The notes under the pieces: generated by a model
What the model was told of the DNA's origin: nothing
Seen by the model: only the letters and a program-made list of their open reading frames with translations
Database searches by the model: none
Translations under genes and position numbers: made by a program
Shown: positions 2 to 16,331 of the stretch, in pieces
Position numbering within the stretch: position 1 is the stretch's first letter
How the letters are laid out: every line of letters starts with the position of its first letter
IMG/VR virus record: IMGVR_UViG_3300025133_007509
Coordinates: 1-26,612 of that record
Reading direction: 5' to 3' (one strand)
Length of the DNA: 26,612 bases
Source of the DNA: a virus

Positions 2-703
2 ATGGTGAACCAGTATGGCGCTCTAATTATTTCTAACTTTGTTCTTCTTGCCCCGGCTCTTAAATCACATATCACGGCATCTTGTTCTTACATAATCTAT
101 GAACATGATCACAAATATGTAAGAACGCGTGACCCATCCAAGTTCGCCAACTTTTGTATCCCTGAGGACCAGATAATAAATAGAGAATTCTATGAGAACG
201 CAAAGAAGGTTGTAGTATTGAGCAGTATTTGCAAAGAGGTAATCGAAAAAAACCTCAAGATTGACAATGTACGTAACATCGGAACGAGCCTGTGGTCAAA
301 AGAGAAGCTTAAGTTTATTAAAGAGTTGTCCAAAAAGACGGAGAAGACAAAAGGAATGGCTCTTATGAATTCGACAAACAAGACAAAGGGAACAGTCCCA
401 GCTCTTCGATTCTGCCAGCAAAAAGGGTTAACTCCAGAAGTAATAGAATCACCAAATCAGTATGAATTTCTTACGATCCTGAGTCAATATGAATCACTTT
501 TGTTTTTACCTCAAGTGCTGGAAACCTATAGTCGATTAGTGGCAGAAGCAAAAATGTTAAATTGCGAAGTGATGACACAAAAGGCACTCATTGGGTTTAT
601 GAGTGAGTCATATTCAGATCAAACTGGCATATCTCTCATAGAGATTATAGAAGGCAAGGTTGACTCAGCATTAGATTATTTTTATGAGGTAATAACATCA
701 TGA
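2..703 (+). CDS. Glycosyltransferase-like protein, probably cut by the left edge
   Basis: The 233 residues read from an ATG at base 2, but the frame is open to the edge, so the true start probably lies outside the window. The second half resembles the nucleotide-sugar-binding half of GT-B (GT1/GT4-type) glycosyltransferases: a short strand followed by 'LETYSRLVAEAKML' at about residues 174-187, the place where these enzymes carry the conserved acidic helix. No signal peptide or membrane segment is visible. The stop overlaps the start of the next gene as ATGA (700-703), so it is translationally coupled to the heptose genes downstream. The family call rests on this one motif and on the neighbourhood; donor and acceptor are unknown. 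Confidence 0.5.
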   Translation: MVNQYGALIISNFVLLAPALKSHITASCSYIIYEHDHKYVRTRDPSKFANFCIPEDQIINREFYENAKKVVVLSSICKEVIEKNLKIDNVRNIGTSLWSKEKLKFIKELSKKTEKTKGMALMNSTNKTKGTVPALRFCQQKGLTPEVIESPNQYEFLTILSQYESLLFLPQVLETYSRLVAEAKMLNCEVMTQKALIGFMSESYSDQTGISLIEIIEGKVDSALDYFYEVITS

Positions 704-1557
704 TCCTGGTCACCGGCGCTGCAGGATTTATTGGTAGTTGTTTGCTAGAAGCAATAACAGAACCAACTGTGTGTGCAGACCCGGCCGGCTACAATATGCT
801 AGCACCAGAAGAAGCCATAGCAGAGCTACAAAGCTCAAAAGACATCAGTTGCGTCTACCATATGGGCGCTATTTCCTCAACAACCGAAACAAACTCGGTA
901 AAGTTAACAGAAAACAATATTTTGTATAGCCTCCGTATTCTGGAGGTGTGTATTATTAAGCAAATACCATTTATCTATGCATCTTCTGCTTCGGTTTATG
1001 GTGCCGCCACTGGTATACAAAGTGAATCACAATTGCTAGCTCCTATTAATGCGTATGCAAGCAGCAAGAGCGCCCTAGATTATTTTGTACAACTAAAAAT
1101 CGACTCTCACCCCGATGCACATATAGTTGGGTTGCGGTACTTTAATGTCTTTGGCCACCGCGAGCACCATAAGGGTGATATGGCCAGCCCGGTACACAAA
1201 TTTACTATACAGGGTCGAAAAACTGGCAAGATAAAAATCTTTGAAGGAAGCTCGGACTTCCAACGTGATTTTGTTCATATTGATGATGTTGTGGCGATGA
1301 CATTGGCTGCCCCCAGCTTTAAGTCGTCAGGAATTTATAATGTGGGAACTGGTGCAGCCCGCTCATTCCAAGATGTAGCAGAAATCATAGCAGCAGCGAC
1401 AGGTGCTGTGATTGAAGAGATCCCCTTCCCGCAACATCTTAAAGGAAAATACCAGAAGTACACTTGCAGCGACAATCATAAAATTTCTATGGCTGGATAT
1501 AACGAGCCACGCCAGAGTCTTGAAGAGGGAATCCGAAAAACGTTGGCGCTAATATGA
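700..1557 (+). CDS. hldD: ADP-L-glycero-D-manno-heptose 6-epimerase
   Basis: This extended short-chain dehydrogenase/reductase of 285 residues (E. coli HldD has 310) converts ADP-D-glycero-D-manno-heptose to the L,D form used in LPS inner core. The NAD(P)-binding GAAGFIG is at residues 6-12, the serine region YASSASVYG at 93-101 and the YxxxK pair at Y119/K123. Several blocks are specific to HldD rather than to general sugar epimerases: 'HKGDMASP', 'FEGSSDFQRDFVHIDDV', 'NVGTGAARSFQDVAE' and 'IPFPQHLKGKYQ'. The N-terminal half is shortened between the first glycine motif and the 'SSTTETN' segment. The next gene starts 4 bases before its stop, and the two following genes supply the preceding pathway steps. 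Confidence 0.93.
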   Translation: MILVTGAAGFIGSCLLEAITEPTVCADPAGYNMLAPEEAIAELQSSKDISCVYHMGAISSTTETNSVKLTENNILYSLRILEVCIIKQIPFIYASSASVYGAATGIQSESQLLAPINAYASSKSALDYFVQLKIDSHPDAHIVGLRYFNVFGHREHHKGDMASPVHKFTIQGRKTGKIKIFEGSSDFQRDFVHIDDVVAMTLAAPSFKSSGIYNVGTGAARSFQDVAEIIAAATGAVIEEIPFPQHLKGKYQKYTCSDNHKISMAGYNEPRQSLEEGIRKTLALI

Positions 1558-1952
1558 AAACTATTTTCATAAATGGATGCTTTGACGTATTGCACAGAGG
1601 GCACTTAGAAATGTTCAAATATGGCGCCAGCTTAGGCGACGAATTGGTAGTTGCTATCGATTCCGATAGAAAAGTGAAAGAAGCAAAAGGGCCCAACCGA
1701 CCGGTAAACAATGTAGAAGATAGAAAGTTTATGTTATCATCTTTACGTTATGTCGACCGAGTTGAGGTCTTTGACTCCCCCGAGGAGCTAGAAAATCTAG
1801 TACGAGTAAACGCCCCAGATATAATGATTGTGGGCTCCGACTGGAAAGGTAAAACAATTGTCGGCGGTGCTCACGCATATGAGATTAGATATTTTGAGAG
1901 AATAGATGGATACTCCACAACCCAAACAATTCAGAATATTAGTAATAGGTGA
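1554..1952 (+). CDS. hldE: D-beta-D-heptose 1-phosphate adenylyltransferase (HldE C-terminal half)
   Basis: This stand-alone nucleotidyltransferase of 132 residues corresponds to the C-terminal domain of bifunctional HldE (RfaE), which transfers AMP from ATP to heptose 1-phosphate. The cytidylyltransferase-like signature 'NGCFDVLHRGHL' spans residues 7-18, with the catalytic HxGH at H14-H17. 'GSDWKGKTIVGG' and the closing 'YSTTQTI' match the HldE domain rather than TagD or CoaD. It starts inside an ATGA overlap with hldD. Its 3' end overlaps the kinase gene by 47 bases in another frame. In E. coli the kinase comes first in one fused protein; here the halves are separate and the order is reversed. 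Confidence 0.92.
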   Translation: MKTIFINGCFDVLHRGHLEMFKYGASLGDELVVAIDSDRKVKEAKGPNRPVNNVEDRKFMLSSLRYVDRVEVFDSPEELENLVRVNAPDIMIVGSDWKGKTIVGGAHAYEIRYFERIDGYSTTQTIQNISNR

Positions 1953-2676
1953 TGCCTGCACGGATCGTTACTATTATGGTTCCGTAACCCGTTTAAGTCC
2001 AGAAGCCCCTGTCCCCGTTTTAAAGCATTTATACACCGAAGAGCGTTTGGGTATGTGTTTGAACGTGGGAGCCAACCTAGAGGCTCTGGGGGCCGTTGTA
2101 GGTGTTCTAAAGAATGATGAGATGATCTATAAAGATCGTTTCGTCGACGCAAAGACCAAGCAACACCTTCTTAGAGCAGATTTTGGCGAAAGTGGTACGG
2201 TACAGCCAATAGATCCACTTAAAGTAGATGTGTCGGATTATGATGCGGTGGTCGTATCCGATTATGATAAGGGATTTGTTTCCCGGGCAGCCGCCAACAG
2301 TATCACAATCAAATGTCATGATGCGGATATTCCCCTATTTGTGGATTCGAAAAAGAAAAATCTTGAATGTTATGGACACTGTTTCATTAAGATTAACGAA
2401 AAAGAAAGTGCTGAAATCCAATCACTCAACGACACAGCAAAATTAATTGTCACATTGGGGGGCCGAGGTGTTGAGTATGAAGGGGTCGTATATCCCACTC
2501 AAGAATGTGAGGTGTTTGATGTATCTGGCGCCGGCGACACGTTCTTGGCAGCCATGGCTCACAAGTACCTAGAAACCAAAAAGATGCCCACATCGCTTAA
2601 GTTTGCTAATGAATGTGCTAGAATAGTAGTACAAAAGTTTGGCACGTACTGCCTCAAGCCGGAAGACCTTATATAA
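1906..2676 (+). CDS. hldE: D-beta-D-heptose 7-phosphate kinase (HldE N-terminal half), shortened
   Basis: This PfkB-family sugar kinase of 256 residues would phosphorylate heptose 7-phosphate at C1. 'SPEAPVPVL' at residues 31-39 is a hallmark of the HldE kinase, and the PfkB anion hole and catalytic base are in 'DVSGAGDT' at 205-212 (D211). The E. coli kinase domain is about 318 residues. Here roughly 60 are missing, mainly between 'GANLEALGA' and the 'LLRADF' strand that matches 'LIRLDF' in E. coli, which trims the lid/dimer region. The ATG at 1906 is the only reasonable Met start and gives a 47-base overlap with the adenylyltransferase gene. The ATP- and base-site motifs are intact, so it is likely active. 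Confidence 0.9.
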   Translation: MDTPQPKQFRILVIGDACTDRYYYGSVTRLSPEAPVPVLKHLYTEERLGMCLNVGANLEALGAVVGVLKNDEMIYKDRFVDAKTKQHLLRADFGESGTVQPIDPLKVDVSDYDAVVVSDYDKGFVSRAAANSITIKCHDADIPLFVDSKKKNLECYGHCFIKINEKESAEIQSLNDTAKLIVTLGGRGVEYEGVVYPTQECEVFDVSGAGDTFLAAMAHKYLETKKMPTSLKFANECARIVVQKFGTYCLKPEDLI

Positions 2677-2677
2677 A

Positions 2678-2998
2678 ATGACGTATGTATTTGATATTGA
2701 TGGGACCATCTGTACAATAACGAATAGTGATTATGCTAATGCAGAGCCTATTCTTGAGCGTATAGAGGCAGTCAACGCCCTCTATGATGAAGGACACACA
2801 ATTATATTTCAGACCGCCCGCGGGATGGGAAGAACGCGCAACAACCCCACCGCCGCCGGGGAAATATTCTATGCGTTTACTCACCAGCAACTGACTGTAT
2901 GGGGAGTGAAATTTCATTCTCTATTTCTAGGGAAGGCCGCCGGCGATGTTTATATCGATGATAAAGGAATAAAAGATGAAGACTTCTTTACCAATTAA
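2678..2998 (+). CDS. Small HAD-family phosphatase; candidate for the GmhB step
   Basis: This capless HAD hydrolase has 106 residues. Motif I is 'FDIDGT' with D6 nucleophile and D8, motif II T46 in 'FQTAR', motif III probably K86, and motif IV the acidic pair in 'YIDDKG' (D94, D95). The start at 2678 sits just before motif I; an in-frame ATG at 2639 would add 13 residues of the kinase overlap and is less likely. It lies one base after the heptose kinase, and the only ADP-heptose step between kinase and adenylyltransferase is dephosphorylation of heptose 1,7-bisphosphate (GmhB, about 190 residues in E. coli). Similar short HADs are annotated as capsule phosphatases. Family membership is clear; the substrate is inferred from context only. 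Confidence 0.75.
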   Translation: MTYVFDIDGTICTITNSDYANAEPILERIEAVNALYDEGHTIIFQTARGMGRTRNNPTAAGEIFYAFTHQQLTVWGVKFHSLFLGKAAGDVYIDDKGIKDEDFFTN

Positions 2999-3335
2999 GT
3001 ATGTCCCCAAAGGATGGGGCTTTGAAAAGTGGATTGTTAATAACGAGGAGTATTGCGGTAAACTGTTGTACTTTGTCAAGGGACGGAAGTGCTCTTGGCA
3101 TTACCACGAACTTAAAGATGAGGTATTCTACATCCAGTCGGGAAAGATGCTGGTAAAGTATTCTGATGAGGATAATCTTGATACAGCCCAAGAGCTGATT
3201 CTGGAACGCGGCGATAACTTCCACGTGTATCGAGGACTAAGACACCAAATGTTGGCGCTAGAGGACACTGAGTTGTTTGAGTTCTCGACTCAGCATTTTG
3301 ATGAAGATTCATATCGAATCGAAAAAGGAGACTAA
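2976..3335 (+). CDS. Cupin-fold protein, sugar-isomerase-like
   Basis: This single-domain cupin has 119 residues. The metal-binding set is complete: H42 and H44 in 'WHYHELKDEVFYI', E49, and H90 in 'LRHQM'. The 'GWGFEKWI' opening followed by 'HYH..KDE.FYI..G' resembles the C-terminal cupin of type II mannose-6-phosphate isomerase/GDP-mannose pyrophosphorylase, but the pyrophosphorylase domain is absent. It overlaps the HAD gene by 23 bases in another frame. It could be a sugar isomerase, an epimerase or a non-catalytic sugar-binding cupin; the sequence does not decide between these. Confidence 0.8.
   Translation: MKTSLPIKYVPKGWGFEKWIVNNEEYCGKLLYFVKGRKCSWHYHELKDEVFYIQSGKMLVKYSDEDNLDTAQELILERGDNFHVYRGLRHQMLALEDTELFEFSTQHFDEDSYRIEKGD
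3325..3330 (+). promoter_or_regulatory. Ribosome-binding site that fixes the start of the tandem methyltransferase
   Basis: AAGGAG lies 6 bases before the ATG at 3337. The same frame is open further upstream from 3277, but only the 3337 start has this spacing. It lies within the last codons of the cupin gene. Confidence 0.7.
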
Positions 3336-4548: not shown

Positions 4549-5364
4549 ATGAATTACTTGTTTATGTGCATGAAGCGCAGTGGCCAACACGGAGTTCTGA
4601 ATTGGTTTGCCCAACAAGCGAACCATGATGTCCTGCATTATAATAACTGTATTAATGGCTGGGGCACAACCCGGCTACTGCCGATGAAAGAGCATATGGT
4701 GGTACACTATCGTTATAATGGTACTGAACATGAAGTGAAGAATTATTTTGTGGATCATAAAATTGATTTTACAGCCAGTGAGGCTTTGCGAAAAGAATTT
4801 TACGATGCGGACTTCTCGGAGGTTGTGGACAACATCTACAATATTGAAGATCTGACATTCGAGGACTATAACCGATTAAAGATGTGGAATTTTGAGGAAA
4901 TGAAGGATGGGGGGAAAACGGTACTTATCGTGAGAGATCCATTTAATTTCATTGCTTCGTGTTTACAGAGGCTCAAGAATCCACCAGACGCAGGAGCAAC
5001 AGATGTGGGAACGCAACTTCCCACCAGAATAAAAGAATGGAAAAGGCACGCCCGACAAGCACTCAGTGCTGATGAAAGCAGTCAGCCAATTGAGATTATT
5101 AACTTTAATGAATGGTTCGCTAGCGAAGAATACCGGCGACAGCTATGTGTACGCTTGGGATTAGAGTTTACTGATCGTGGGCTGAATAAGGTTATGAACT
5201 TCGGCAGCGGCAGCTCTTTCGACCGTGAGAAGTTCGATGGCAATGCTCAACAGATGAAGGTACTCACTCGGTATGAAGAATGGAAAGATCACACCGCGTT
5301 CAAGCATCTTGTCGACGACGAAATTGTAGAATTGGCTTCGGCGCTGTTTGGGATAAAGCTATGA
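4549..5364 (+). CDS. Sulfotransferase-like protein
   Basis: The 271-residue protein has a P-loop-like opening, 'MKRSGQHGVLNWF' at residues 8-20, in the place of the 5'-phosphosulfate-binding loop of PAPS sulfotransferases. 'LIVRDPFNFIASCLQ' at 126-140 matches the 3'-phosphate-binding motif with R129/D130. The two motifs are about 110 residues apart, as in the family. It would transfer sulfate from PAPS to a sugar hydroxyl. No PAPS-forming genes are seen here, so the donor would come from the host. The gene is 3 bases after the methyltransferase and overlaps the next gene as ATGA. Other P-loop kinases could look similar at the first motif, but the RDP motif supports a sulfotransferase. Confidence 0.72.
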   Translation: MNYLFMCMKRSGQHGVLNWFAQQANHDVLHYNNCINGWGTTRLLPMKEHMVVHYRYNGTEHEVKNYFVDHKIDFTASEALRKEFYDADFSEVVDNIYNIEDLTFEDYNRLKMWNFEEMKDGGKTVLIVRDPFNFIASCLQRLKNPPDAGATDVGTQLPTRIKEWKRHARQALSADESSQPIEIINFNEWFASEEYRRQLCVRLGLEFTDRGLNKVMNFGSGSSFDREKFDGNAQQMKVLTRYEEWKDHTAFKHLVDDEIVELASALFGIKL

Positions 5365-6119
5365 AAGATATCTTAGTCATCTATCCTCATGGGCTTGGGG
5401 ATTGTGTTCTTTTAACGCCGACCCTAAGAGAGTACTATCATAAACATGGACAGAAGCTTAATATTGCGACTCTAGAGAGATTCCGATCTGCGCAGTTCTT
5501 CGATCATAATCCCTATGTGGATCAGATCTATTATACCAAAGATGCTTGGCTAGATTATCCTAATTCACAAGTCGGCTTTAATACTGTATACAATGATTGG
5601 AAAACTTACGCCCGCGAGCAAGGGTTACGAGGAGTTGTGATGCCAATGCATTCTAATCCCATAAGTAAGATCATTCTGAATTTTAAATATTTAGGGATCC
5701 CTGCGGATGCAAATCCAGTAACTGAGTTGCATACCACGTCTGAAGATGTTGCCGTAGCGGATAATATAATCGCAAAACTAGTAGGAGATGCTCCTTTTGG
5801 GTTTGTGCAAACCAATACGGGAGTCCCGTCAAAAGATCTCCCAGCTGATTACGGCCGCACTTGGCTTAAAGACCAGCGTGGACTTGAAAATGTTATAGAA
5901 ATTGGAAAAGAGATAGGTGCTCTAGATTATAATATTAACATACAGTTCGAGATTTTACGTCGAGCCGCGGCAGTGTGTATCCCAGATTCGGTTTTTTACC
6001 ACGCCTGTCATGCAATGAACAAGCCCATTGATTTGGTTTATTTTGGCCGCGGCAAAGGCATCTATGATCGAGTTCGTCCTTTGCATGAGGTAAAAGAAAA
6101 TGTGGTATTTAAATTATGA
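5361..6119 (+). CDS. Glycosyltransferase family 9 (heptosyltransferase-like)
   Basis: This 252-residue protein starts inside an ATGA overlap with the sulfotransferase gene. An in-frame ATG at 5280 would read through the end of that gene and is rejected. The opening 'IYPHGLGDCVLLTPTLREY' is the GT9 N-terminal signature (family form: GxGDxxxxxPxxxxL). 'CIPDSVFYHACHAMNKP' near residues 206-222 occupies the place of the C-terminal 'D(T/S)..(M/F)H.A' donor-site motif. The members known from LPS synthesis (WaaC, WaaF, WaaQ) use ADP-heptose, which fits the hld genes upstream. It is about 80-100 residues shorter than WaaC/WaaF, so the acceptor half is reduced. Donor identity is inferred. Confidence 0.78.
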   Translation: MKDILVIYPHGLGDCVLLTPTLREYYHKHGQKLNIATLERFRSAQFFDHNPYVDQIYYTKDAWLDYPNSQVGFNTVYNDWKTYAREQGLRGVVMPMHSNPISKIILNFKYLGIPADANPVTELHTTSEDVAVADNIIAKLVGDAPFGFVQTNTGVPSKDLPADYGRTWLKDQRGLENVIEIGKEIGALDYNINIQFEILRRAAAVCIPDSVFYHACHAMNKPIDLVYFGRGKGIYDRVRPLHEVKENVVFKL

Positions 6120-7000
6120 AGATTTTATTCATTGGCGTATTTGATAGCGCTAATCGGTCAACCAATAACGCACAATTGCGTGGGTTCCTTAAGACAGGAG
6201 CACAGGTTATAGGGATTAATTTCCGACAAAAACAACAAGAAATAGGATCCGAAGCGCTGGATCAACTAATCATTGATACATGCCGAGAAAGACGCCCCGA
6301 TCTAGTAGTATTCTCTAAGTGCGCGGAGTTAGATACTCGCGTCTTTGTGGAGTGCTCAGAGCTAACAACGACTTGCCTGTGGTGGATGGACCCTCTGAGC
6401 ACCCTCAATCAGACAACCGGAATCTTAGATAAGGCCCGTCATAGTACATATGTTTGCACTGGTGTTGCTAACACTATTAGTGTTTTTAAGGAAGTCAATC
6501 CGGAGGTGCATTATATACTGGAAGGCTATGACCCATTATTCCATAAGCCTCACGAAGCAGATCAAGATCTGGGCCTCACATTTATCGGGTCATTACATTC
6601 GGAGCGGAGAAAATGGCTAACCGCCATAGACCACCCGGTTACCCATGTGTCGAATGCCTATGCGGGCGAGCATGCGGTGGTTGTGTCCAGAACGAAGATA
6701 AATCTTAATTTGGCCACTATGGGCGGTGCTTCTGATAGGGTATATAAGGTCCTCGGCGCCCGGGGTTTTCTCCTTACGTCAGATTGGGAAGGACGTCAAG
6801 AGCTGTTTACCGATGGTGAGGATTTGGTTATCTATACCGACGCAGATGACCTTAATCAAAAGATAACTTATTACTTAAAAAATCCGGAAAAGAGAGATAA
6901 AATAAGGCTGCAGGGATATAAGAAGGTTCAGGGCATGTCAAAGGACGCCTGGGCCCAGAAGATCCTCGACATCTACCACGAGAAGGTAACTAATTCATGA
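6116..7000 (+). CDS. CgeB-type glycosyltransferase
   Basis: The 294-residue protein has the layout of the CgeB / Glyco_trans_1_2 group of GT-B glycosyltransferases. A Rossmann half opens with 'MKILFIGVFDS', a linker carries 'ILEGYDPLFH' (as in the family's '.P.g.dp..f.P'), and the C-terminal half carries 'FIGSLHSERRKWL' and 'DRVYKVLGARGFLLTSD' at about residues 207-223. In this group the last block is the nucleotide-sugar-binding helix, normally followed by an acidic residue pair, here 'GRQELFTDGEDLV'. No membrane segment is visible. It overlaps both neighbours as ATGA. Donor and acceptor cannot be read from sequence. Confidence 0.8.
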   Translation: MKILFIGVFDSANRSTNNAQLRGFLKTGAQVIGINFRQKQQEIGSEALDQLIIDTCRERRPDLVVFSKCAELDTRVFVECSELTTTCLWWMDPLSTLNQTTGILDKARHSTYVCTGVANTISVFKEVNPEVHYILEGYDPLFHKPHEADQDLGLTFIGSLHSERRKWLTAIDHPVTHVSNAYAGEHAVVVSRTKINLNLATMGGASDRVYKVLGARGFLLTSDWEGRQELFTDGEDLVIYTDADDLNQKITYYLKNPEKRDKIRLQGYKKVQGMSKDAWAQKILDIYHEKVTNS

Positions 7001-8001
7001 CAGAACGCGTTAAAATAGGCCTTGTAGGAACGGGCTATTGGGGGAAAAATCTTCTCCGAAACTTTGTTAATTGTACGTTGACCACTGTAACAGCAGTTTG
7101 TGATGCTAATACAGAACTAGCCAAAACACGCATAGAAGATTATGGAGACATAGAAATTTATGCTGATGTGACCACAATGCTAGAAAATGCAAATGTAGAT
7201 GCTATTGCTGTTGCCACTCCGGTACGCACGCACTTTGATATTGCCATGGCAGCATTGCGGTGCGGAAAGCACGTCCTTGTTGAAAAGCCAATTGCGTTAA
7301 ATTATGAGCAGGCAACACAGTTGGTAGCTGAGGCAAGCAACAACAATCTTACACTGATGTGTGATCATACCTTCTGTTATTCGGGCCCCGTCAGGCGTAT
7401 TCGTCAAGTTATAGAAAGTGGAATATTGGGAGACGTTGTAACTATTAACTCCACAAGAACAAACCTTGGATTGTTTCAGAAAGATGTCAATGTGTTGTGG
7501 GATTTAGCCCCGCACGACTTGTCGATTTGTGAATACATTTTGGGGGACTCATATTCTCCGGTTTCGGTTAGAGCAACAGGCACCAAACATCCTCATTCTC
7601 CTTTTGTAGCTGACGCTCATATGCACCTATCATTAGAAAACAATGTGAATATTGCTATTCATAATAGCTGGTTAGCACCAACTAAGACACGTCAATTTAC
7701 TATAGTAGGAACAAAAAAGATGCTTGTGTGGGATGACTTGAGTCCTAACGATAAAGTAAAAATATGTCATAAAAATATGCGAAAGGATGGGGAGGTTTTT
7801 GTTTACACTGACGATGGTACAACTTGCCCATCAATAGATATGACTGAGCCGCTGCTGGAAGTAGCTAATGATTTTGCTAGGTGCGTACTCACCGGAGATA
7901 GTCCTGTTGCCCCTGGTCATACGGCAGCTCAAATAGTTCAGATTTTAGAGTTGGCAGACGAATGTCTTGTGACTTCTGAAACGCTGGAGGTCTCCTCGTG
8001 A
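6997..8001 (+). CDS. Gfo/Idh/MocA oxidoreductase, UDP-sugar 3-dehydrogenase type
   Basis: The 334-residue NAD(P)-dependent dehydrogenase has 'GTGYWG' at residues 11-16, the family 'EKP' at 96-98 and 'WDLAPHDLSI' around 168-177, whose His is the proposed catalytic residue in WlbA. The best functional match by motif and neighbours is WlbA/WbpB/GnnA, which oxidises C3 of a UDP-HexNAc(uronate) before transamination. The aminotransferase and acetyltransferase that complete such a pathway follow directly, with ATGA and GTGA overlaps. WbpB in particular needs 2-oxoglutarate-coupled NADH recycling; whether this enzyme does cannot be seen. The UDP-GlcNAcA-forming dehydrogenase WbpA/WlbO is absent. Confidence 0.85.
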   Translation: MTERVKIGLVGTGYWGKNLLRNFVNCTLTTVTAVCDANTELAKTRIEDYGDIEIYADVTTMLENANVDAIAVATPVRTHFDIAMAALRCGKHVLVEKPIALNYEQATQLVAEASNNNLTLMCDHTFCYSGPVRRIRQVIESGILGDVVTINSTRTNLGLFQKDVNVLWDLAPHDLSICEYILGDSYSPVSVRATGTKHPHSPFVADAHMHLSLENNVNIAIHNSWLAPTKTRQFTIVGTKKMLVWDDLSPNDKVKICHKNMRKDGEVFVYTDDGTTCPSIDMTEPLLEVANDFARCVLTGDSPVAPGHTAAQIVQILELADECLVTSETLEVSS

Positions 8002-8480
8002 TAGCAGCAACAGCCTTGGTAGCAGATTCGGTTTGTTTAGGGGCCGATGTAGCGATTTATCACTATACAAATTTGTACGGGTGCACCATTGGAGATCAGT
8101 CAAAAATAGGCACATTTGTAGAAATACAGAAGAACGCAACGATCGGGAAGCTTTGTAAGATTTCCAGCCACACCTTTATATGTGAGGGTGTAATAATTGG
8201 TGATGGATGCTTTGTTGGCCATGGTGTTATGTTTATAAATGATAGATTTCCTGCTTCGCTTAACAGCGGAGGTTCGTTGGCGACAGATGACGATTGGATC
8301 CTGGAAACCACAACCGTAGGAGACCGTGTGAGCATAGGCACGGGCGCAACAATTATGTGCGGCGTTACTATTGGGGATGATGCTGTTGTGGGCGCCGGAG
8401 CTGTAGTCTTAAAAGATGTCCCCCCTAATACAACAGTAGTGGGCAACCCCGCTAGAGTAATCTCAAGGAGAGAAAAATGA
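7998..8480 (+). CDS. Left-handed beta-helix N-acetyltransferase, WbpD/WlbB type
   Basis: The 160-residue protein consists almost entirely of hexapeptide repeats, for example 'GCTIGDQSKIGTFVEI', 'GVIIGDGCFVGHGV' and 'GVTIGDDAVVGAGAVV', and closes with the usual 'VVGNPARVI'. The loop 'MFINDRFPAS' matches the WlbB/WbpD/FdtC subgroup, which acetylates a 3-amino sugar nucleotide with acetyl-CoA. The start is GTG at 7998, overlapping the previous stop by 4 bases. Its gene lies between the dehydrogenase and the aminotransferase, the layout of a 2,3-diacetamido-sugar pathway. Confidence 0.85.
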   Translation: MIAATALVADSVCLGADVAIYHYTNLYGCTIGDQSKIGTFVEIQKNATIGKLCKISSHTFICEGVIIGDGCFVGHGVMFINDRFPASLNSGGSLATDDDWILETTTVGDRVSIGTGATIMCGVTIGDDAVVGAGAVVLKDVPPNTTVVGNPARVISRREK

Positions 8481-9586
8481 TTCCGTTCGTAGACCTTAAA
8501 CCACAACACAGGCAGATTAAAGAAAGATTGCTCACTGCATGGGAAGAAATTATAGATTGTACAGGCTTCGTCGGCGGACCCTGGGTTGATCGCCTGGAGG
8601 CTGGTTTTGCAGAACTATGTGATACCACAGAATGCATCGCCGTCTCCAGCGGTACAGACGCCTTAGAAGTTGCCCTACGAGGCCTCGGCGTCGAACCCGG
8701 GGATGAGGTAATTCTACCTGCCAATACTTTTGTGGCCACTGCTGAAGCGGTCATGTTAGTGGGCGCTATCCCGGTGCTAGTTGATTGCAAGTGGGGAACC
8801 TGGAACATAGATCCCGAAAGTGTCCGCGCAGCGATCACTGACCGTACAGCGGGTATTATCGGGGTACATTTGTATGGACAGCCGTGTGATATGGACGCGC
8901 TCAAGGAAATAGCTCAAGAACGAAATCTCTGGGTACTAGAGGACAGCGCACAAGCTCATCTAGCAACATATAAAGGTTCTCCTTGTGGATCACTGGGAGA
9001 TGCTGCAGCATTCTCATTCTATCCCGGAAAGAATTTGGGAGCAACCGGCGAAGGTGGCGCCGTTACGACAAATAGCACTGAACTAGCTAATATTATACAG
9101 CAAGTCCGAAACCATGGCTCTAGCGAAAAATATGTACATAACGTTTTAGGCAATAACTCGCGTCTCTCATCGGTCCTTGCTGCCGGCCTAGCCATTAAAC
9201 TAGATTATATCGCAGACTGGACCAAGCAGCGCTGCGATAATGCTGCCACCTACTTAGAACATCTTTCTGATGTCCCCGGACTGACGCTGCCCGTAGTAGA
9301 AGAGTGGGCGAATCCCGTATGGCACCTATTTGTTGTACATCTCACAGATCCTAAAGATGCCCAGACATTTTTAAAAGAAAACGGAGTAGCCACAGGACTA
9401 CATTACCCTACCCCCCTCCATTTGCAAGAGGTGTTGGCGGACTCGTATGGTTCCCTCGGTCAGTTTCCGAATGCCGAATATAATGCTAGCCACTGTCTGA
9501 GTCTGCCGATGTATGCAGAGCTTACACAAGAACAAATCGTAAAGGTTTGCGACGAGCTAAAGAGATACATATCTCAGAAGCAGTAA
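8477..9586 (+). CDS. DegT/DnrJ/EryC1 sugar aminotransferase, WbpE/WlbC type
   Basis: This full-length PLP-dependent sugar aminotransferase has 369 residues. It shows 'SGTDAL' at 58-63 for phosphate binding, 'EDSAQAH' around 155-161 with the pyridine-nitrogen Asp, and the PLP lysine K185 in 'FYPGKNLGATGEGG'. 'GLHYPTPLHLQ' near the C-terminus is typical of the WbpE/FdtB group that aminates 3-keto sugar nucleotides. AAGGAG at 8465-8470 stands 6 bases before the ATG, which overlaps the acetyltransferase stop as ATGA. With the two preceding genes it forms the dehydrogenase/acetyltransferase/aminotransferase trio. Confidence 0.92.
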   Translation: MIPFVDLKPQHRQIKERLLTAWEEIIDCTGFVGGPWVDRLEAGFAELCDTTECIAVSSGTDALEVALRGLGVEPGDEVILPANTFVATAEAVMLVGAIPVLVDCKWGTWNIDPESVRAAITDRTAGIIGVHLYGQPCDMDALKEIAQERNLWVLEDSAQAHLATYKGSPCGSLGDAAAFSFYPGKNLGATGEGGAVTTNSTELANIIQQVRNHGSSEKYVHNVLGNNSRLSSVLAAGLAIKLDYIADWTKQRCDNAATYLEHLSDVPGLTLPVVEEWANPVWHLFVVHLTDPKDAQTFLKENGVATGLHYPTPLHLQEVLADSYGSLGQFPNAEYNASHCLSLPMYAELTQEQIVKVCDELKRYISQKQ

Positions 9587-9589
9587 CCA

Positions 9590-10423
9590 ATGAGTGTGAA
9601 ACAGCTAATCGTCGGACCTTGGGTTGGGGAATTTGGTTGGGAACTATTTGCGTGGCAGGCGCATATGCGCTCTCTTTCCCAGCATTACGATAATACTGTT
9701 GTTATATGTCGTTCTACCTCGCAGGCTTTATATGCGGACTTTGCTGATGAGTTCATATCTCTGCCAGAACTCAGTGGGCTAGCGGATTCTTTCTTTATGC
9801 ATGGAGTAGATACAAGCCGCGTCTTGAAGGAGGTGCTACAATCTCATACTCAACTCTTCAAGCCAGGCACCACCCTTATCCCTCCCAGGCGCCTGGGGAT
9901 GCCTCCTTTTACACCCTGCACACAGTCCGAAGTATTTGGGGAAAGACATATAATACCCCACTATCTCAAATTTGGAGATATAGGAGATAAGTCCTATGAC
10001 TATATTTTCCACATTCGCGACCGAGATCTGCGCAAGGAAGATAATTGGAGTCTGACGAACTGGAAACACCTTCGGGATAAACTACAAAATGATGGATCCA
10101 CCATAGCATGCATAGGAACACCAGCTGAGTCCGCGCATATTGATGACACCACAGATTTGCGTGATGGGGATTTGGCGACTGTTTTTGATGTGATTCGCAA
10201 TAGCGACTGTGTTTTTGGACCTTCCTCTGGACCGATGCATCTAGCTAGTTTATGTGGAGCCCCCCATGTGGTGTGGTCGAAAGAAGGCAACAGGGATAGG
10301 TATATTAATACATGGAACCCCCATGCAACAGCTGTTCTGTTTTTGTCTGAAAAATCCTGGCACCCTACGCCCGAGTATGTGTTCGCAGAGTTTAATAAAT
10401 GGAGAAAAGAATGGAAGTTATAG
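9590..10423 (+). CDS. GT9-like glycosyltransferase
   Basis: The 277-residue protein opens with 'GPWVGEFGWELFAWQAH', common in GT9-related proteins of surface-glycan clusters. 'FGPSSGPMHLASLCGAPHV' at about residues 209-227 is a very clear GT9 donor-site motif (family form: G.D.G..H.A...G.P). 'FHIRDRDLRKEDNW' at about 140-153 would be the start of the C-terminal Rossmann half. Compared with the GT9 gene at 5361, this one has a canonical C-terminal motif and an atypical N-terminus. It begins 3 bases after the aminotransferase gene. The sugar transferred is unknown. Confidence 0.72.
   Translation: MSVKQLIVGPWVGEFGWELFAWQAHMRSLSQHYDNTVVICRSTSQALYADFADEFISLPELSGLADSFFMHGVDTSRVLKEVLQSHTQLFKPGTTLIPPRRLGMPPFTPCTQSEVFGERHIIPHYLKFGDIGDKSYDYIFHIRDRDLRKEDNWSLTNWKHLRDKLQNDGSTIACIGTPAESAHIDDTTDLRDGDLATVFDVIRNSDCVFGPSSGPMHLASLCGAPHVVWSKEGNRDRYINTWNPHATAVLFLSEKSWHPTPEYVFAEFNKWRKEWKL
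10401..10404 (+). promoter_or_regulatory. Ribosome-binding site deciding the start at 10411
   Basis: GGAG lies 6 bases before the ATG at 10411. The alternative ATG at 10399 has no such element, so the shorter form is preferred. Confidence 0.55.
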
Positions 10424-12692: not shown

Positions 12693-13346
12693 ATGGATAT
12701 ACGGTTTAAAACTGTAGTAGTTCAAAAAAGTATGGTGAGATCTGGAGGCACTGTGCTAAGATTGATTTTAAATAGAGTCTTCAACGATGAGAAGTGTTTT
12801 GCCAATCATTCGTACAGGTATCCAGTCGACCGCACTCATAGCTATGAAAAACTACGCCCTGGGGGAAATAAAGTGCTGATAACCACCTGGAGGGACCCTA
12901 AAGATGTTGCTGTTTCTCTTATAAGAGTTGGTCGCAAAAAAACTTTTTCTAGCAACAGCGACCTAGTTGCTGCGTGTGATGATATCATGGGGTCTTTTAA
13001 TGGCATTAGACTCGCCGAAAAAGAAAATCCCGAAGGCCTATTTTTAAAGTATGAAAATTGGCATTGCAATTTTGATTATTTATTTGATAGATTAGAAGAC
13101 ACATATGATGGTAAAATAAGTAAAGAAATAAGAGATTCAATCGAGAAAGACTTTTCAAAAGAAGCAATAAGGAAGAAGCAAAGTGTCTTTTCAAATTTTT
13201 CTGAATATGACAAGGACACCCATATACATGGAGATCACGTGCACAATGGCTTTAGACAATGGGATAAAGTTTTTAATGAAAAACAAATAAAAATATTAGA
13301 TAATAAATTAGAATCTTATATTGAATACTGGGAAAAATTGGAATAA
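12693..13346 (+). CDS. Sulfotransferase family protein
   Basis: The 217-residue protein has 'KSMVRSGGTVLRLIL' at 12-26 as the phosphosulfate loop, 'TTWRDPKDVAVSLIRV' at 64-79 as the 3'-phosphate motif, and 'HNGFRQWDKVFNEKQ' near the C-terminus in the position of the family's 'G..G.W...f'. It is more typical of PAPS sulfotransferases than the gene at 4549. An ATG at 12684 is possible but lies only one base from the purine run AGAGG at 12678-12682; the ATG at 12693 gives a 10-base spacing. The 3' half is extremely AT-rich (9 G/C in 13261-13320), unlike both neighbours, which points to separate acquisition. Confidence 0.8.
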   Translation: MDIRFKTVVVQKSMVRSGGTVLRLILNRVFNDEKCFANHSYRYPVDRTHSYEKLRPGGNKVLITTWRDPKDVAVSLIRVGRKKTFSSNSDLVAACDDIMGSFNGIRLAEKENPEGLFLKYENWHCNFDYLFDRLEDTYDGKISKEIRDSIEKDFSKEAIRKKQSVFSNFSEYDKDTHIHGDHVHNGFRQWDKVFNEKQIKILDNKLESYIEYWEKLE

Positions 13347-14338
13347 TGAAAATGAAAAAAGCATTGATAACAGGCATATCAGGCCAGGACGGCAGCTACC
13401 TAACAGAATTATTAAGTTCTAAGGGCTATGAGGTTCATGGCATTGTACGCCGCCATTCGGTGGCCGAAAACCAGAACTTCCGATTGGGTAAGCTAGGAGA
13501 TTTGCCCAATGTGCACACCCACTATGGTGATCTTCTCGACTATCCGTCGCTTGTGAGAATTATGACAAAGGTTCAGCCAGATGAGATTTATAATTTAGGC
13601 GCTATGAGTCATGTCCGAGTGAGCTTCGATATGCCATCGTTTACTATCCAAACTAATGCGATGGGCGTATTAAATATGCTAGAAATTTATAGGACTATCT
13701 GCCCTACTGCAAAATTCTATCAAGCTAGCTCGTCTGAAATGTTTGGAAACTCCGTTGATGAAGACGGAATACAACGCCTAACAACTCCAATGAGCCCAGT
13801 GAGCCCCTACGGGTGCGCTAAAGTGATGGGATACAACCTCGTACGCCACTATCGGCACGCCTACGGATTACACGCTTGCAATGGTATATTGTTTAATCAT
13901 GAATCCCCTCGACGCGGCACCAACTTCGTGACAAACAAGGTCGTGAAAACAGCTGTACAGATCAAAAAGGGCCTCACTGACAAATTAGAGTTGGGTAATA
14001 TGGACTCCTCTAGAGATTGGGGACATTCTAAGGACTACGTAAGGGCTATGCATATGATAATTAACCATGGTACACCCGAAGAATTTATAGTTGCTACAGG
14101 CGAAACTCACACTGTCCGCCACTTATGTGAGATAGTGTTTACAAAGCTGGGGATGAACTATGAAGATTATGTAGTGCAAAATCCCAAGTATATGCGACCT
14201 GAGGAGTTAAAGTATCTCAAAGGAGATTCTTCCAAATCCCGAGAGGTACTTGGATGGGAACCAGAGTATACCTTTGAGTCTATGTTAGAAGAGATGATAG
14301 ATCGCTGGATATCAGAGATTTATGTAAAAAAGTTTTAA
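13346..14338 (+). CDS. gmd: GDP-mannose 4,6-dehydratase
   Basis: This enzyme makes GDP-4-keto-6-deoxy-D-mannose, precursor of GDP-fucose, GDP-rhamnose and GDP-perosamine. It has 330 residues: the cofactor loop 'GISGQDG' at 10-16, 'HYGDLLDYPSL' at 59-69, the catalytic 'SSSEMFG' at 128-134, YxxxK at Y155/K159, and the Gmd hallmark 'LFNHESPRRG' at 182-191. 'GNMDSSRDWGHSKDYV' is the family's RDWGHA-type segment with Ser for Ala. No GDP-fucose synthase (fcl) follows; the mini-DegT and acyltransferase upstream could instead lead to a perosamine-like sugar. Start and previous stop share one base. It is the last gene of the glycan cluster. Confidence 0.95.
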   Translation: MKMKKALITGISGQDGSYLTELLSSKGYEVHGIVRRHSVAENQNFRLGKLGDLPNVHTHYGDLLDYPSLVRIMTKVQPDEIYNLGAMSHVRVSFDMPSFTIQTNAMGVLNMLEIYRTICPTAKFYQASSSEMFGNSVDEDGIQRLTTPMSPVSPYGCAKVMGYNLVRHYRHAYGLHACNGILFNHESPRRGTNFVTNKVVKTAVQIKKGLTDKLELGNMDSSRDWGHSKDYVRAMHMIINHGTPEEFIVATGETHTVRHLCEIVFTKLGMNYEDYVVQNPKYMRPEELKYLKGDSSKSREVLGWEPEYTFESMLEEMIDRWISEIYVKKF

Positions 14339-14418
14339 ATAACAAGTATAATATAAGAGAACGTAAAAGAAAATAAATGTTCTGGTTAAAATATTTCAAG
14401 AAAGGATATAAATTAACA
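14339..14418 (+). promoter_or_regulatory. AT-rich intergenic stretch, possible promoter between glycan and late genes
   Basis: This is the longest gene-free stretch in the window. It holds TATAAT at 14347-14352, a weak 7-bp inverted repeat (AGAACGT 14358-14364 with ATGTTCT 14377-14383, one G-T pair, 12-base loop) and TATAAATT at 14407-14414, one base from the T4 late box. No convincing -35 element or T-run terminator is present. The 14407 box is too close to the next ATG (14419) to serve that gene with a leader. A promoter or processing site is plausible but not shown. Confidence 0.3.
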
Positions 14419-14598
14419 ATGCCAAAAAAGACCACAACTGTGTCAAGAAAAGCAACTGAAAAGACACTCATAACAGTCGCAAAAGTAGAGGATATCGTAG
14501 ATAAAAGTTTGCGAAAGGCCCTCCAGGATCAAGCACGTGAGCTTGAATCTCATCTGAGTGACATCGATAAAAGATTAAGAGCCCTGGAGGGAAAATAA
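14419..14598 (+). CDS. Small coiled-coil protein, unknown
   Basis: The 59-residue protein has a basic Ser/Thr/Lys-rich head (first 15 residues) and a charged helical remainder whose end, 'ARELESHLSDIDKRLRALEG', has heptad-like leucines and isoleucine typical of a coiled coil. A longer reading from an ATG at 14377 adds 14 residues of intergenic sequence; AAAGG at 14401-14405 favours the start at 14419. No family recognised. It lies first in the gene string leading to the late sigma factor. Confidence 0.55.
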   Translation: MPKKTTTVSRKATEKTLITVAKVEDIVDKSLRKALQDQARELESHLSDIDKRLRALEGK

Positions 14599-14599
14599 T

Positions 14600-14809
14600 A
14601 TGAAACTATCAAACCAAGCAGTCGGAGCCCTGATGATGGCTCTCCAGAAGTCACTAATGGAACAAAGTGATATTGTGCCTGTCTTAACAGGAATGGACTT
14701 TGTGTCTGATACTGAGGGAGATCTCTCGGTCACCAACCCACCGGTGGTATCTCTTGATGGAGTTGAAGTCTTAGGTGACGACTCCGACAATCTCAGTACA
14801 GAGGAATAA
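14600..14809 (+). CDS. Small acidic protein, unknown
   Basis: The 69-residue protein has a short helix 'NQAVGALMMALQKSLMEQ' followed by an acidic tail rich in Asp, Ser and Val ending 'DDSDNLSTEE'. A strong GGAGG at 14586-14590, 9 bases upstream, marks the start as real, and the next gene follows after 2 bases. No family recognised. Its size, acidity and place near the sigma factor would suit a co-activator like T4 gp33, but no sequence match supports that. Confidence 0.6.
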   Translation: MKLSNQAVGALMMALQKSLMEQSDIVPVLTGMDFVSDTEGDLSVTNPPVVSLDGVEVLGDDSDNLSTEE

Positions 14810-14811
14810 GT

Positions 14812-15060
14812 ATGCCGCGTTATCGGTATCGTTGTAATAACTGCGACGAAACACAAACGATACAGCATCTATCAAGCGAACTGCTTAAAGACTGCGACCT
14901 ATGTGAAACAGCCGATACACTGACGAAGCTACTCAGTACATTCTCTACCGCAAAAAAAACAACAAGTCGCAAAAAGACTGGACAGATCACAGAAGAGTTC
15001 ATTCAAGACGCTCGACAAGATCTTAAAAAACAGAAAACAGATTTTAAGGAGAACACCTAA
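14812..15060 (+). CDS. FmdB-type zinc-ribbon protein
   Basis: The 82-residue protein has an N-terminal zinc ribbon: 'YRCNNCDETQTIQHL' and 'CDLCETADTLTKLLS' provide two CxxC pairs (C8/C11 and C28/C31), the layout of the FmdB/CxxC_CXXC_SSSS family of putative regulatory proteins. The tail is basic and helical with 'KKTTSRKKTGQI'. Such ribbons are common in T4-like phages and have no established function there; DNA or RNA contact is possible. GAGGA at 14801-14805 precedes the start by 6 bases, and the stop shares one base with the next start. Confidence 0.75.
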   Translation: MPRYRYRCNNCDETQTIQHLSSELLKDCDLCETADTLTKLLSTFSTAKKTTSRKKTGQITEEFIQDARQDLKKQKTDFKENT

Positions 15061-15377
15061 TGGAACTTTATTTGTTGTTCGCCGTCTCAATTCTTCTGAA
15101 TGGAGTTTTGATCTGGTACATAACCAGATTGTTGAGAAAATTTGTCTTTATTTCTGAGAATATGGCAGACTTGTTTCTTACTGTAAAAGCATTTCAGGTT
15201 TTTGCAAGCTCGATGTATAGTATGGACAGCTATCATGGTGAGCCTATGATACAGGAGCTTGTGGTGAGGATTAGAGAAGTTGGTCTGGAGATGGAAGACT
15301 TCCGAGACATATTTGAATATGGACTCGATGCCGAATTAGAGGAAGAACTTAATGCCGCCGAAGAAGAGAAAAGCTAG
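15060..15377 (+). CDS. Small membrane-anchored protein, unknown
   Basis: The 105-residue protein has one N-terminal hydrophobic segment (residues 3-24, 'YLLFAVSILLNGVLIWYI'), then a helical region and a very acidic C-terminal end ('EEELNAAEEEKS'). The segment followed by 'TRLLRK' predicts an inner-membrane anchor with the charged tail in the cytoplasm. AAGGAG at 15046-15051, 8 bases upstream, supports the start. The stop lies 26 bases inside the sigma-factor gene, so translation of the two is linked. No family recognised. Confidence 0.6.
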   Translation: MELYLLFAVSILLNGVLIWYITRLLRKFVFISENMADLFLTVKAFQVFASSMYSMDSYHGEPMIQELVVRIREVGLEMEDFRDIFEYGLDAELEEELNAAEEEKS

Positions 15378-16047
15378 AAAAAAGAATCATTACTTCACAA
15401 AGGTCCATGAAGACGCAATTGTGAAGTATGCAAACACGGAGGACCGCCAACTCCGAGGGATGTTGTACGAAGAGTACATACAGCCTGCATTTGATCAGAT
15501 GGTCGATAAAATTATTTACACTTATCGATTTACGACACTGCCGAATATTGACTACCTCAAGGGGGATTGCAAGGTTTGGCTCACAACCATATTAAATAAA
15601 TACGACCCGAATAAGGGCTCGAAAGCATTCTCATACTTTTCAGTTGTGACCAAGAACTGGTTTATTCACAAAGTCAAACAGACACAGAAAAGAAACCGAA
15701 CTGAGGTCTTCATGGAAGACGTTATCAACGAGGTAGAAGAAAACTTGGTGTCGAAGGAAAGGTCATACCTCCAGGTCCGTTCTGAAATAGAATTTTGGAA
15801 GTCGTTGCATCATGAGATAGACACTTGGGACTCTTTTATGCTCAAAGAAAATGAGAAAAAAGTTTTAATGGCAGTCCGGATCCTATTGGAATCTGCTGAC
15901 ACAATTGAAATTTTCAACAAAAAAGCTATTTACTTATATCTTAGGGAGATCACAGGACTCAATACAAAACAAGTCGTGAACAATCTTAATAAACTAAGAA
16001 AAAGATATAGGACGTTTAAAAACAAATGGCAAAGCGGCGCGATCTAA
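15352..16047 (+). CDS. 55: T4 gp55-like sigma factor for late transcription
   Basis: The 231-residue protein replaces the host sigma factor on RNA polymerase to read phage late promoters. It is longer than T4 gp55 (185 residues). A divergent sigma region 2 covers about residues 38-112, with the core-binding and promoter-melting pattern 'LNKYDPNKGSKAFSYFSVVTKNWFIHKVKQ' (aromatic residues F93, Y95, F96, W103, F104), typical of gp55. The start is lysine-rich ('PPKKRKARKKNH'). A predicted helix-turn-helix-like end lies at about 185-222 ('YLYLREITGLNTKQVVNNLNKL'). The gene overlaps both neighbours (26 and 22 bases). In T4, gp55 works with gp33 and the clamp gp45, neither of which is recognised here. 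Confidence 0.82.
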   Translation: MPPKKRKARKKNHYFTKVHEDAIVKYANTEDRQLRGMLYEEYIQPAFDQMVDKIIYTYRFTTLPNIDYLKGDCKVWLTTILNKYDPNKGSKAFSYFSVVTKNWFIHKVKQTQKRNRTEVFMEDVINEVEENLVSKERSYLQVRSEIEFWKSLHHEIDTWDSFMLKENEKKVLMAVRILLESADTIEIFNKKAIYLYLREITGLNTKQVVNNLNKLRKRYRTFKNKWQSGAI

Positions 16048-16331
16048 GTCTAGAAGAATACCTCGAAGAGACGACTAGAAATATTCGGGAAGACCGAGCA
16101 ATGGCCAAGACCTTGCTCGTTGATGTCATGACAGATATGGCTACATCCCCTACGGACCGTCGAGAGATGGGACCTATTGCAGCTAAATTTGTAGAAAACC
16201 TACAGCGCTCCAACGAGCAAATGGTTAAACTAGCTGCCATCATTCAGAAACAAAAAACCCAGCAGTTCGGCCTGTCTGCGGACGACAAAGAACAGTTGTT
16301 TGATTTGCTGAATGAGGAAGAGAAGCCGTGA
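16026..16331 (+). CDS. Small helical protein, unknown
   Basis: The 101-residue protein is charged and predicted all-helical, with 'EEYLEETTRNIREDRAMAKTLLVDVM' near the start, 'IAAKFVENLQRSNEQMVKLAAIIQKQ' in the middle and an acidic end. The overlap with both neighbours and the intact frame support a real gene. Helical proteins of this size in T4-like phages include small terminase subunits and baseplate assembly factors, but no signature decides. No clear ribosome-binding site is visible, consistent with coupling to the sigma-factor gene. Confidence 0.6.
   Translation: MAKRRDLSLEEYLEETTRNIREDRAMAKTLLVDVMTDMATSPTDRREMGPIAAKFVENLQRSNEQMVKLAAIIQKQKTQQFGLSADDKEQLFDLLNEEEKP

What the first reader, a model, noticed from the sequence alone, without database searches (positions are those of the whole stretch)
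700..2998. Nearly complete ADP-heptose pathway on a phage, with HldE split and in reversed order
HldD, the HldE adenylyltransferase and the HldE kinase are adjacent, the kinase gene overlaps the adenylyltransferase by 47 bases in another frame, and a HAD phosphatase follows. Only GmhA (sedoheptulose-7-phosphate isomerase) is missing from view. In E. coli HldE is one protein with the kinase first. The phage could raise ADP-heptose supply to alter LPS core, exclude rival phages or decorate its own virion.
Basis: partly seen in the sequence, partly recalled or inferred. Interest (0 to 1): 0.7.

Follow-up and report, generated by a model that had tools for sequence, protein, structure and literature searches.

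The report
Phage heptose-sugar genes, possible new isomerase
A marine virus of bacteria carries a compact set of genes, already known from related cyanophages, that probably makes an activated seven-carbon sugar; the one enzyme thought to be missing may be a small neighbouring cupin protein of a type not known to do that step.

Summary
The genes are real: HldD-like (700-1557), HldE-adenylyltransferase-like (1554-1952), HldE-kinase-like (1906-2676, 47-nt overlap) and a HAD phosphatase (2678-2998), followed by an overlapping cupin (2976-3335). The same module (T4-GC 304-308) has been catalogued as LPS genes in cyanophages since 2010, so phage ADP-heptose genes and the split, reordered HldE are not new. 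Kinase and epimerase are clearly HldE/HldD-type and keep catalytic residues. The nucleotidyltransferase is nearest HldE by family score but carries two cytidylyltransferase-like pocket residues, so ATP use is unproven. The HAD is of the EcbF/BcbF type, widely mislabelled 'phosphoheptose isomerase'. GmhA is absent, but the cupin may fill its step: it accompanies the kinase in 31/31 marine phage records and 75/80 viral loci fetched by kinase; records lacking this kinase place the cupin between GDP-heptose enzymes HddA and HddC, a pathway sharing only the GmhA and GmhB steps; one operon has cupin, canonical GmhB, AT, kinase and HldD; weak sequence and fold matches are partly to cupin aldose-ketose isomerases. 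Against exclusivity: some loci carry the cupin with no heptose gene nearby. Phage kinases form a phage-specific lineage, so recent host capture is not supported.

The parts
2..703 (+). ORF upstream of the module, 5' truncated by the contig end; by eye the C-terminal part of a glycosyltransferase
   Evidence: homologues L001 5953-6795, L002 5866-6792; no Pfam hit at 0.01
700..1557 (+). HldD-like ADP-heptose 6-epimerase; Ser96, Tyr119, Lys123, Lys158 = E. coli HldD Ser116, Tyr140, Lys144, Lys178
   Evidence: TIGR02197 273.5 bits, cut-off 274.6; alignment and residue map
1554..1952 (+). HldE-AT-like nucleotidyltransferase (HRGH, GYSTT motifs; DW and Arg116 as in TagD)
   Evidence: TIGR02199 107 bits, TagD 66 bits; phrog_7878
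1906..2676 (+). HldE-kinase-like PfkB sugar kinase, about 60 aa shorter than the HldE kinase domain, GAGD catalytic motif kept; overlaps the AT by 47 nt
   Evidence: TIGR02198 164.8 bits; PDB 4e84 112 bits
2678..2998 (+). small HAD phosphatase (EcbF/BcbF type), candidate GmhB stand-in; called 'phosphoheptose isomerase' in PHROGs and RefSeq
   Evidence: TIGR01689 40.5 bits; phrog_1238; PDB 9iqw 78.5 bits, 1xpj
2976..3335 (+). cupin, candidate sedoheptulose-7-phosphate isomerase (GmhA stand-in); invariant H42, H44, E49, H90 metal-site pattern

Best explanation
The five overlapping genes at 700-3335 are a compact, phage-specific operon that makes an activated heptose, most likely ADP-heptose, from host sedoheptulose 7-phosphate. 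Inferred steps: the cupin isomerises sedoheptulose 7-phosphate to D-glycero-D-manno-heptose 7-phosphate; the HldE-type kinase phosphorylates C1; the small HAD removes the 7-phosphate; the AT attaches a nucleotide; the HldD-type enzyme epimerises C6. The product would feed the glycosyltransferase-rich sugar cluster that follows, to remodel the infected cell's surface or decorate virions. Shown by sequence: identity of kinase and epimerase, and conservation of the gene set. Inferred: cupin and HAD substrates, nucleotide used, final acceptor.
For: Family scores and catalytic residues of kinase and epimerase. Same module in isolated cyanophages. 53 of 72 distinct cupin loci have HAD+kinase+AT. Reciprocally, of 78 distinct loci fetched by kinase, 75 have AT, 48 the small HAD, 45 HldD, 1 GmhA-like; 75 of the 80 fetched loci have a cupin, three of the five exceptions being short or at a contig edge. 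In L224 the operon is cupin - canonical GmhB (NF006506 133 bits) - AT - kinase - HldD, all overlapping: every step but the isomerase is accounted for and only the cupin is unassigned. Every one of 31 marine phage records with the kinase has the cupin; the 4 cupin records without it have HddA (279-287 bits in the two annotated genomes) - cupin - HddC-like in overlapping genes, a pathway that shares only the GmhA and GmhB steps. No SIS_2 in 10 relatives. Cupin profile matches L-ribose, D-lyxose and mannose-6-P isomerases (weak), Pfam Lyx_isomer in 17/39 members, D-lyxose isomerase 7nzq Z 14.4, rmsd 2.8, 114 aligned, 25% identity; the four metal ligands of that isomerase (H75, H77, E88, H143, PMC8378251) correspond by motif to H42, H44, E49, H90.
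Against: No enzyme activity is known. Cupin matches to isomerases are weak (E 0.001-0.05) and the fold is shared with KdgF, CapF, oxalate decarboxylase and others. Some loci carry the cupin without any heptose kinase within 8 kb, including one ORF that looks like a NeuB-cupin fusion (L096), one next to a GDP-mannose-dehydratase-like gene (L072) and ones with no sugar genes. Two of 50 viral records have a plausible GmhA-like SIS protein along with the module, and SynMITS9220M01 has a second, SIS-type candidate. The AT pocket is TagD-like at two positions, so the nucleotide could be CTP. AT and kinase score below NCBI's curated cut-offs.
Confidence: 0.6

Rival explanations
1. Same heptose module, but the isomerase is supplied by the host GmhA and the cupin does a side reaction or serves another sugar, for example as a phosphomannose isomerase feeding the GDP-mannose 4,6-dehydratase at 13346-14338.
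For: Cupin resembles type II / archaeal phosphomannose isomerases; the window encodes GMD; GMD lies near 17 of 85 cupin loci; a cyanophage phosphomannose isomerase has been reported (PMC9602691); cupin occurs without heptose genes in some loci.
Against: Of the same 85 loci, 68 have the heptose kinase; GMD is near only 2 of 80 kinase loci while a cupin is in 75. The cupin sits inside both ADP- and GDP-heptose operons. Only 18 of 61 genomes of the picocyanobacterial family have a GmhA match, so host supply is not general for cyanophage hosts.
Confidence: 0.25
2. The module makes a different activated sugar: the AT is a cytidylyltransferase (CDP-heptose or a CDP-polyol) and the pathway only resembles ADP-heptose synthesis.
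For: PDB profile search scores GCT 1coz 92.5 and ethanolamine-P cytidylyltransferase 3elb 116 bits (two domains) at or above 5x9q 89; Arg116 invariant in 11 phage ATs aligns with the Arg of the RTxxISTT motif of TagD-like proteins, and DW replaces the DY of most HldEs.
Against: TIGR02199 beats TIGR01518 by 41 bits; KGxxRPVN and IVG motifs are HldE-like; in the tree phage ATs sit between TagD-like and bacterial HldE rows; other phages with a closely similar cupin and HAD have the canonical KGGDY AT without the Arg; the partner epimerase is the ADP-heptose type. Some Planctomycete HldEs also have DW.
Confidence: 0.15
3. The genes are non-functional cargo kept for genome length (headful filling).
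For: Raised for cyanophage LPS genes in PMC3037559.
Against: Open frames, conserved overlaps and catalytic residues across highly diverged phages; gene order shuffles while the set stays.
Confidence: 0.03

Closest known systems
Cyanophage T4-GC 304-308 cluster (P-SSM2, S-SSM7, S-SM2, S-CAM1/3)
   Same: Homologous AT, kinase, HAD, cupin, epimerase; AT-kinase overlap in most; placed with glycosylation genes
   Different: Window phage has no close isolate by its 1759-aa structural protein; epimerase lies upstream on the same strand instead of downstream and inverted as in P-SSM2 and S-CAM3
Bacterial ADP-heptose pathway (GmhA, HldE, GmhB, HldD)
   Same: HldE kinase and HldD type enzymes with catalytic residues kept
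   Different: HldE split; kinase shortened; GmhA absent; HAD not a GmhB orthologue; extra cupin
GDP-heptose pathway (GmhA, HddA, GmhB, HddC) as in Caulobacter phage Cr30 and SynMITS9220M01/Bellamy
   Same: Shares the first (isomerase) and phosphatase steps; the cupin occurs there too in Bellamy, SynMITS9220M01 and AG-345-E15
   Different: Other kinase (GHMP) and guanylyltransferase; Cr30 has a true SIS-type GmhA next to its HddA-like kinase
Cupin aldose-ketose isomerases (D-lyxose isomerase, L-ribose isomerase, type II and archaeal phosphomannose isomerase)
   Same: Fold, HxH-E-H metal pattern, YC-K and EFS(S/T)Q stretches
   Different: 20-25% identity; substrate of the phage protein unknown

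Membership tests
HldD (TIGR02197) | family score at curated cut-off (274.6 bits) | tested here: inconclusive
   273.5 bits, next unrelated family (GalE) 89 bits
HldD (TIGR02197) | catalytic Tyr140/Lys178, Ser116, Lys144 | tested here: met
   all four kept in the window and nine aligned sequences
HldE kinase domain (TIGR02198) | family score at curated cut-off (345 bits) | tested here: not met
   164.8 bits, shortened protein; still best family by far (ribokinase 46 bits)
HldE kinase domain (TIGR02198) | GAGD motif and RxSPExPVPV signature | tested here: met
   G208-A209-G210-D211; R29, P32, E33, P35-V38 invariant with E. coli HldE
HldE adenylyltransferase domain (TIGR02199) | family score at curated cut-off (181.5 bits) | tested here: not met
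   107 bits
HldE adenylyltransferase domain (TIGR02199) | HxGH and G-x-S-T-T motifs | tested here: met
   HRGH, GYSTT
HldE adenylyltransferase domain (TIGR02199) | pocket motif KGxD[YW], no Arg three residues before the GxSTT motif | tested here: not met
   VGSDW and ERIDGYSTT in the window; the bacterial HldE ATs read out have KG-x-D-Y/W and none has the Arg
TagD glycerol-3-P cytidylyltransferase (TIGR01518) | family score at curated cut-off (165.4 bits) | tested here: not met
   66 bits
GmhB | best match to GmhB models | tested here: not met
   window HAD matches EcbF-BcbF (40.5 bits), no GmhB model listed
GmhA (SIS fold) | SIS_2 domain encoded in the record | tested here: not met
   none in the window record or 10 relatives
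cupin sugar isomerase | cupin fold with HxH..E..H metal site | tested here: met
   model pLDDT 96.5, fold matches; H42, H44, E49, H90 invariant
cupin sugar isomerase | aldose-ketose isomerase activity | not testable with these tools
   needs enzyme assay

The most novel reading that the evidence does not exclude
The cupin (window 2976-3335, T4-GC 307) is a sedoheptulose-7-phosphate isomerase unrelated to GmhA, so marine phages carry complete, self-sufficient heptose pathways built with non-orthologous isomerase and phosphatase, usable with either the ADP (HldE) or the GDP (HddA/HddC) branch.
Probability: 0.45. Interest if true: 0.65.

Novelty: new variant of a known kind. Interest (0 to 1): 0.45.

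Why it matters
If the cupin is the isomerase, phages do not depend on host gmhA and can make heptose in hosts that lack it; marine Synechococcus LPS is reported to contain no heptose (PMC4515613), which raises the testable question of where the phage-made heptose goes. It would also correct labels: the HAD is called 'phosphoheptose isomerase' and the cupin 'cysteine dioxygenase' in reference records, and 'phosphoheptose isomerase [gmhA]' has been used as a marine viral AMG marker (PMC9238414).

Tried and rejected
GT9 heptosyltransferase idea for 5361-6119: no PDB or Pfam match and a poor model (pLDDT 58, only 3 relatives), so left open and no fold search run. Same for 9590-10423 (no PDB match). 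Recent capture from a host: phage kinases fall on one side of a supported branch from bacterial HldE (97*); phage ATs form two lineages apart from bacterial HldE, with weak support for where they join. Literature search for a cupin sedoheptulose isomerase found none in the held library; absence there is weak evidence. The 2005 P-SSM2 genome paper was not held.
Full report
OBSERVATION. The window is a whole IMG/VR virus record of 26,612 bases. The HAD more plausibly starts at ATG 2678 than at TTG 2639 (sequence).

IDENTITY OF THE PARTS. Epimerase: TIGR02197 273.5 bits (cut-off 274.6), next unrelated family 89 bits; E. coli HldD Ser116, Tyr140, Lys144 and Lys178 are kept in all ten aligned sequences. 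Kinase: TIGR02198 164.8 bits versus ribokinase 46; with a phage profile the best PDB match is heptose-7-phosphate kinase 4e84, 112 bits, next a ribokinase at 45; GAGD and the RxSPExPVPV signature are kept, about 60 residues are missing. Kinase and AT fall well short of curated cut-offs, so I call them HldE-like rather than HldE. AT: TIGR02199 107 bits versus TagD 66, but the PDB profile search scores the cytidylyltransferases 3elb (116, two domains) and 1coz (92.5) at or above 5x9q (89.3), and the window AT has VGSDW and ERIDGYSTT where bacterial HldE has KG-x-D-Y/W and no Arg. Its nucleotide is therefore open. HAD: EcbF/BcbF-type capsule phosphatase family (TIGR01689; PDB 9iqw and 1xpj), not a GmhB orthologue and not a phosphoheptose isomerase as PHROGs and RefSeq name it.

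THE MODULE IS KNOWN IN CYANOPHAGES. The same five genes are T4-GC 304-308 in P-SSM2 and recur in S-CAM3, S-SSM7 and S-SM2, with four of the five (no epimerase close by) in S-T4 and Sf-CH8. Sullivan et al. 2010 noted that T4-GCs 304, 305, 307 and 308 co-occur with other LPS genes in three phages (PMC3037559), and SynMITS9220M01 was reported with heptose genes (PMC7378029). In viral contigs the AT-before-kinase order is common (26 loci, most with an overlap of roughly 40 nt), but 17 loci have kinase before AT and 11 have them apart: order shuffles, the set stays.

IS GMHA REALLY MISSING? No SIS_2 match in the window, in the 64-kb and 61-kb closest relatives, two other viral contigs or six cyanophage genomes. 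Of 50 further viral records four have sub-threshold hits; one, in G045, gives TIGR00441 at 65.6 bits against a cut-off of 209. In the picocyanobacterial family, 18 of 61 genomes have a GmhA match at E 1e-5. The host of the window phage is unknown.

THE CUPIN AS CANDIDATE ISOMERASE. (i) Association: 53 of 72 distinct cupin loci have HAD, kinase and AT. Fetching by kinase instead, 54 of 78 distinct loci have the cupin at 100 bits or more and 75 of the 80 loci have one at 60 bits or more; three of the five exceptions are short or at a contig edge. A divergent cupin class accompanies the kinase in most loci where the small HAD is absent. (ii) Operon logic: in L224 five overlapping genes read cupin, canonical GmhB (NF006506 133 bits), AT, kinase, HldD (TIGR02197 242 bits); only the isomerase step and only the cupin are left unassigned. 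L247, L241, L226, L238 and L204 show other orders of the same set. (iii) Second pathway: all 31 marine phage records with the kinase have the cupin, and the 4 cupin records without it (Bellamy twice, SynMITS9220M01, AG-345-E15) have HddA, cupin and an HddC-like guanylyltransferase in overlapping genes. Records include duplicates of the same phage. ADP- and GDP-heptose synthesis share only the GmhA and GmhB steps (established pathway knowledge). Caulobacter phage Cr30 shows the mirror case: an HddA-like kinase with a true SIS-type GmhA, and no cupin match in that record. (iv) Fold: an AlphaFold model of pLDDT 96.5 matches CapF, KdgF, Pac13, archaeal phosphomannose isomerase and D-lyxose isomerase at similar Z (14-15), with the highest identity (25%) to D-lyxose isomerase 7nzq. 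Profile searches are weak but point partly the same way. By motif, H42, H44, E49 and H90 correspond to the metal ligands H75, H77, E88 and H143 of that isomerase (PMC8378251). Phosphomannose isomerase makes mannose 6-phosphate from fructose 6-phosphate; GmhA makes the one-carbon-longer manno sugar from sedoheptulose 7-phosphate, so the chemistry is analogous (established knowledge).

COUNTER-EVIDENCE. Fifteen of 72 loci lack the kinase in the stretch held, three of these at contig edges; the rest include an ORF that looks like a NeuB-cupin fusion (L096), a neighbour of a GMD-like gene (L072) and loci with no sugar genes (L105, L106). The cupin may thus be a sugar-phosphate isomerase of wider use, or something else recruited to several pathways. 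No activity is known.

ORIGIN. Phage kinases form one side of a supported branch (97*) from bacterial HldE. Phage ATs fall into two lineages between TagD-like and bacterial HldE rows (short alignment, many unresolved forks); the second lineage has canonical KGGDY pockets yet the same cupin and HAD. So the halves do not show a single recent bacterial source, and the AT may have been swapped.

ROLE. The module opens a run of sugar genes (3.3-14.3 kb: methyltransferase domains, glycosyltransferase, Gfo/Idh-hexapeptide-DegT set, GMD) just before a late-sigma-like gene and baseplate genes. Surface remodelling or virion decoration are both possible; nothing here separates them. Marine Synechococcus LPS is reported to lack heptose (PMC4515613).

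VERDICT. Observation confirmed; interpretation partly supported; the module is a known cyanophage set in a phage without close isolates. The new element is the evidence that the cupin supplies the 'missing' step.

Noticed in passing
window 2678-2998; NC_006883.2 PSSM2_311: phrog_1238 and RefSeq call this HAD phosphatase 'phosphoheptose isomerase'; the neighbouring cupin is called 'cysteine dioxygenase' or 'nucleotidyltransferase'. These labels look wrong.
   Followed up: yes
window 5361-6119 and 9590-10423: By eye GT9/heptosyltransferase-like glycosyltransferases; not confirmed (no profile hit; poor model for the first).
   Followed up: partly
window 6997-9586: Gfo/Idh oxidoreductase, hexapeptide acetyltransferase and DegT aminotransferase in a row, a WbpB/D/E-like set for an amino sugar.
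   Followed up: no
window 13346-14338: GDP-mannose 4,6-dehydratase (TIGR01472 368 bits, cut-off 415).
   Followed up: no
window 14377-16331; L077 8513-10119; L095 6964-8585: By eye, relatives share the genes downstream of the sugar cluster (zinc ribbon, late-sigma-like) but carry different cargo upstream: a cargo hotspot.
   Followed up: no
window 19890-25169: 1759-aa structural protein; its first 1000 residues have no match in the 50,697 phage records.
   Followed up: no
L096 7071-8345: Single ORF that looks like a sialic-acid-synthase (NeuB) domain joined to this cupin.
   Followed up: no
L028 (QCKN01000003.1): A contig filed under a Prochlorococcus single-cell genome looks viral (recombinase and cargo genes).
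   Followed up: partly
L110 1294-2984 (G045): GmhA-like SIS protein next to a dehydroquinate-synthase-like gene in a phage that also has the cupin module.
   Followed up: partly
L001 4-426: A second, different nucleotidyltransferase-like ORF beside PhoH in the closest relative.
   Followed up: no
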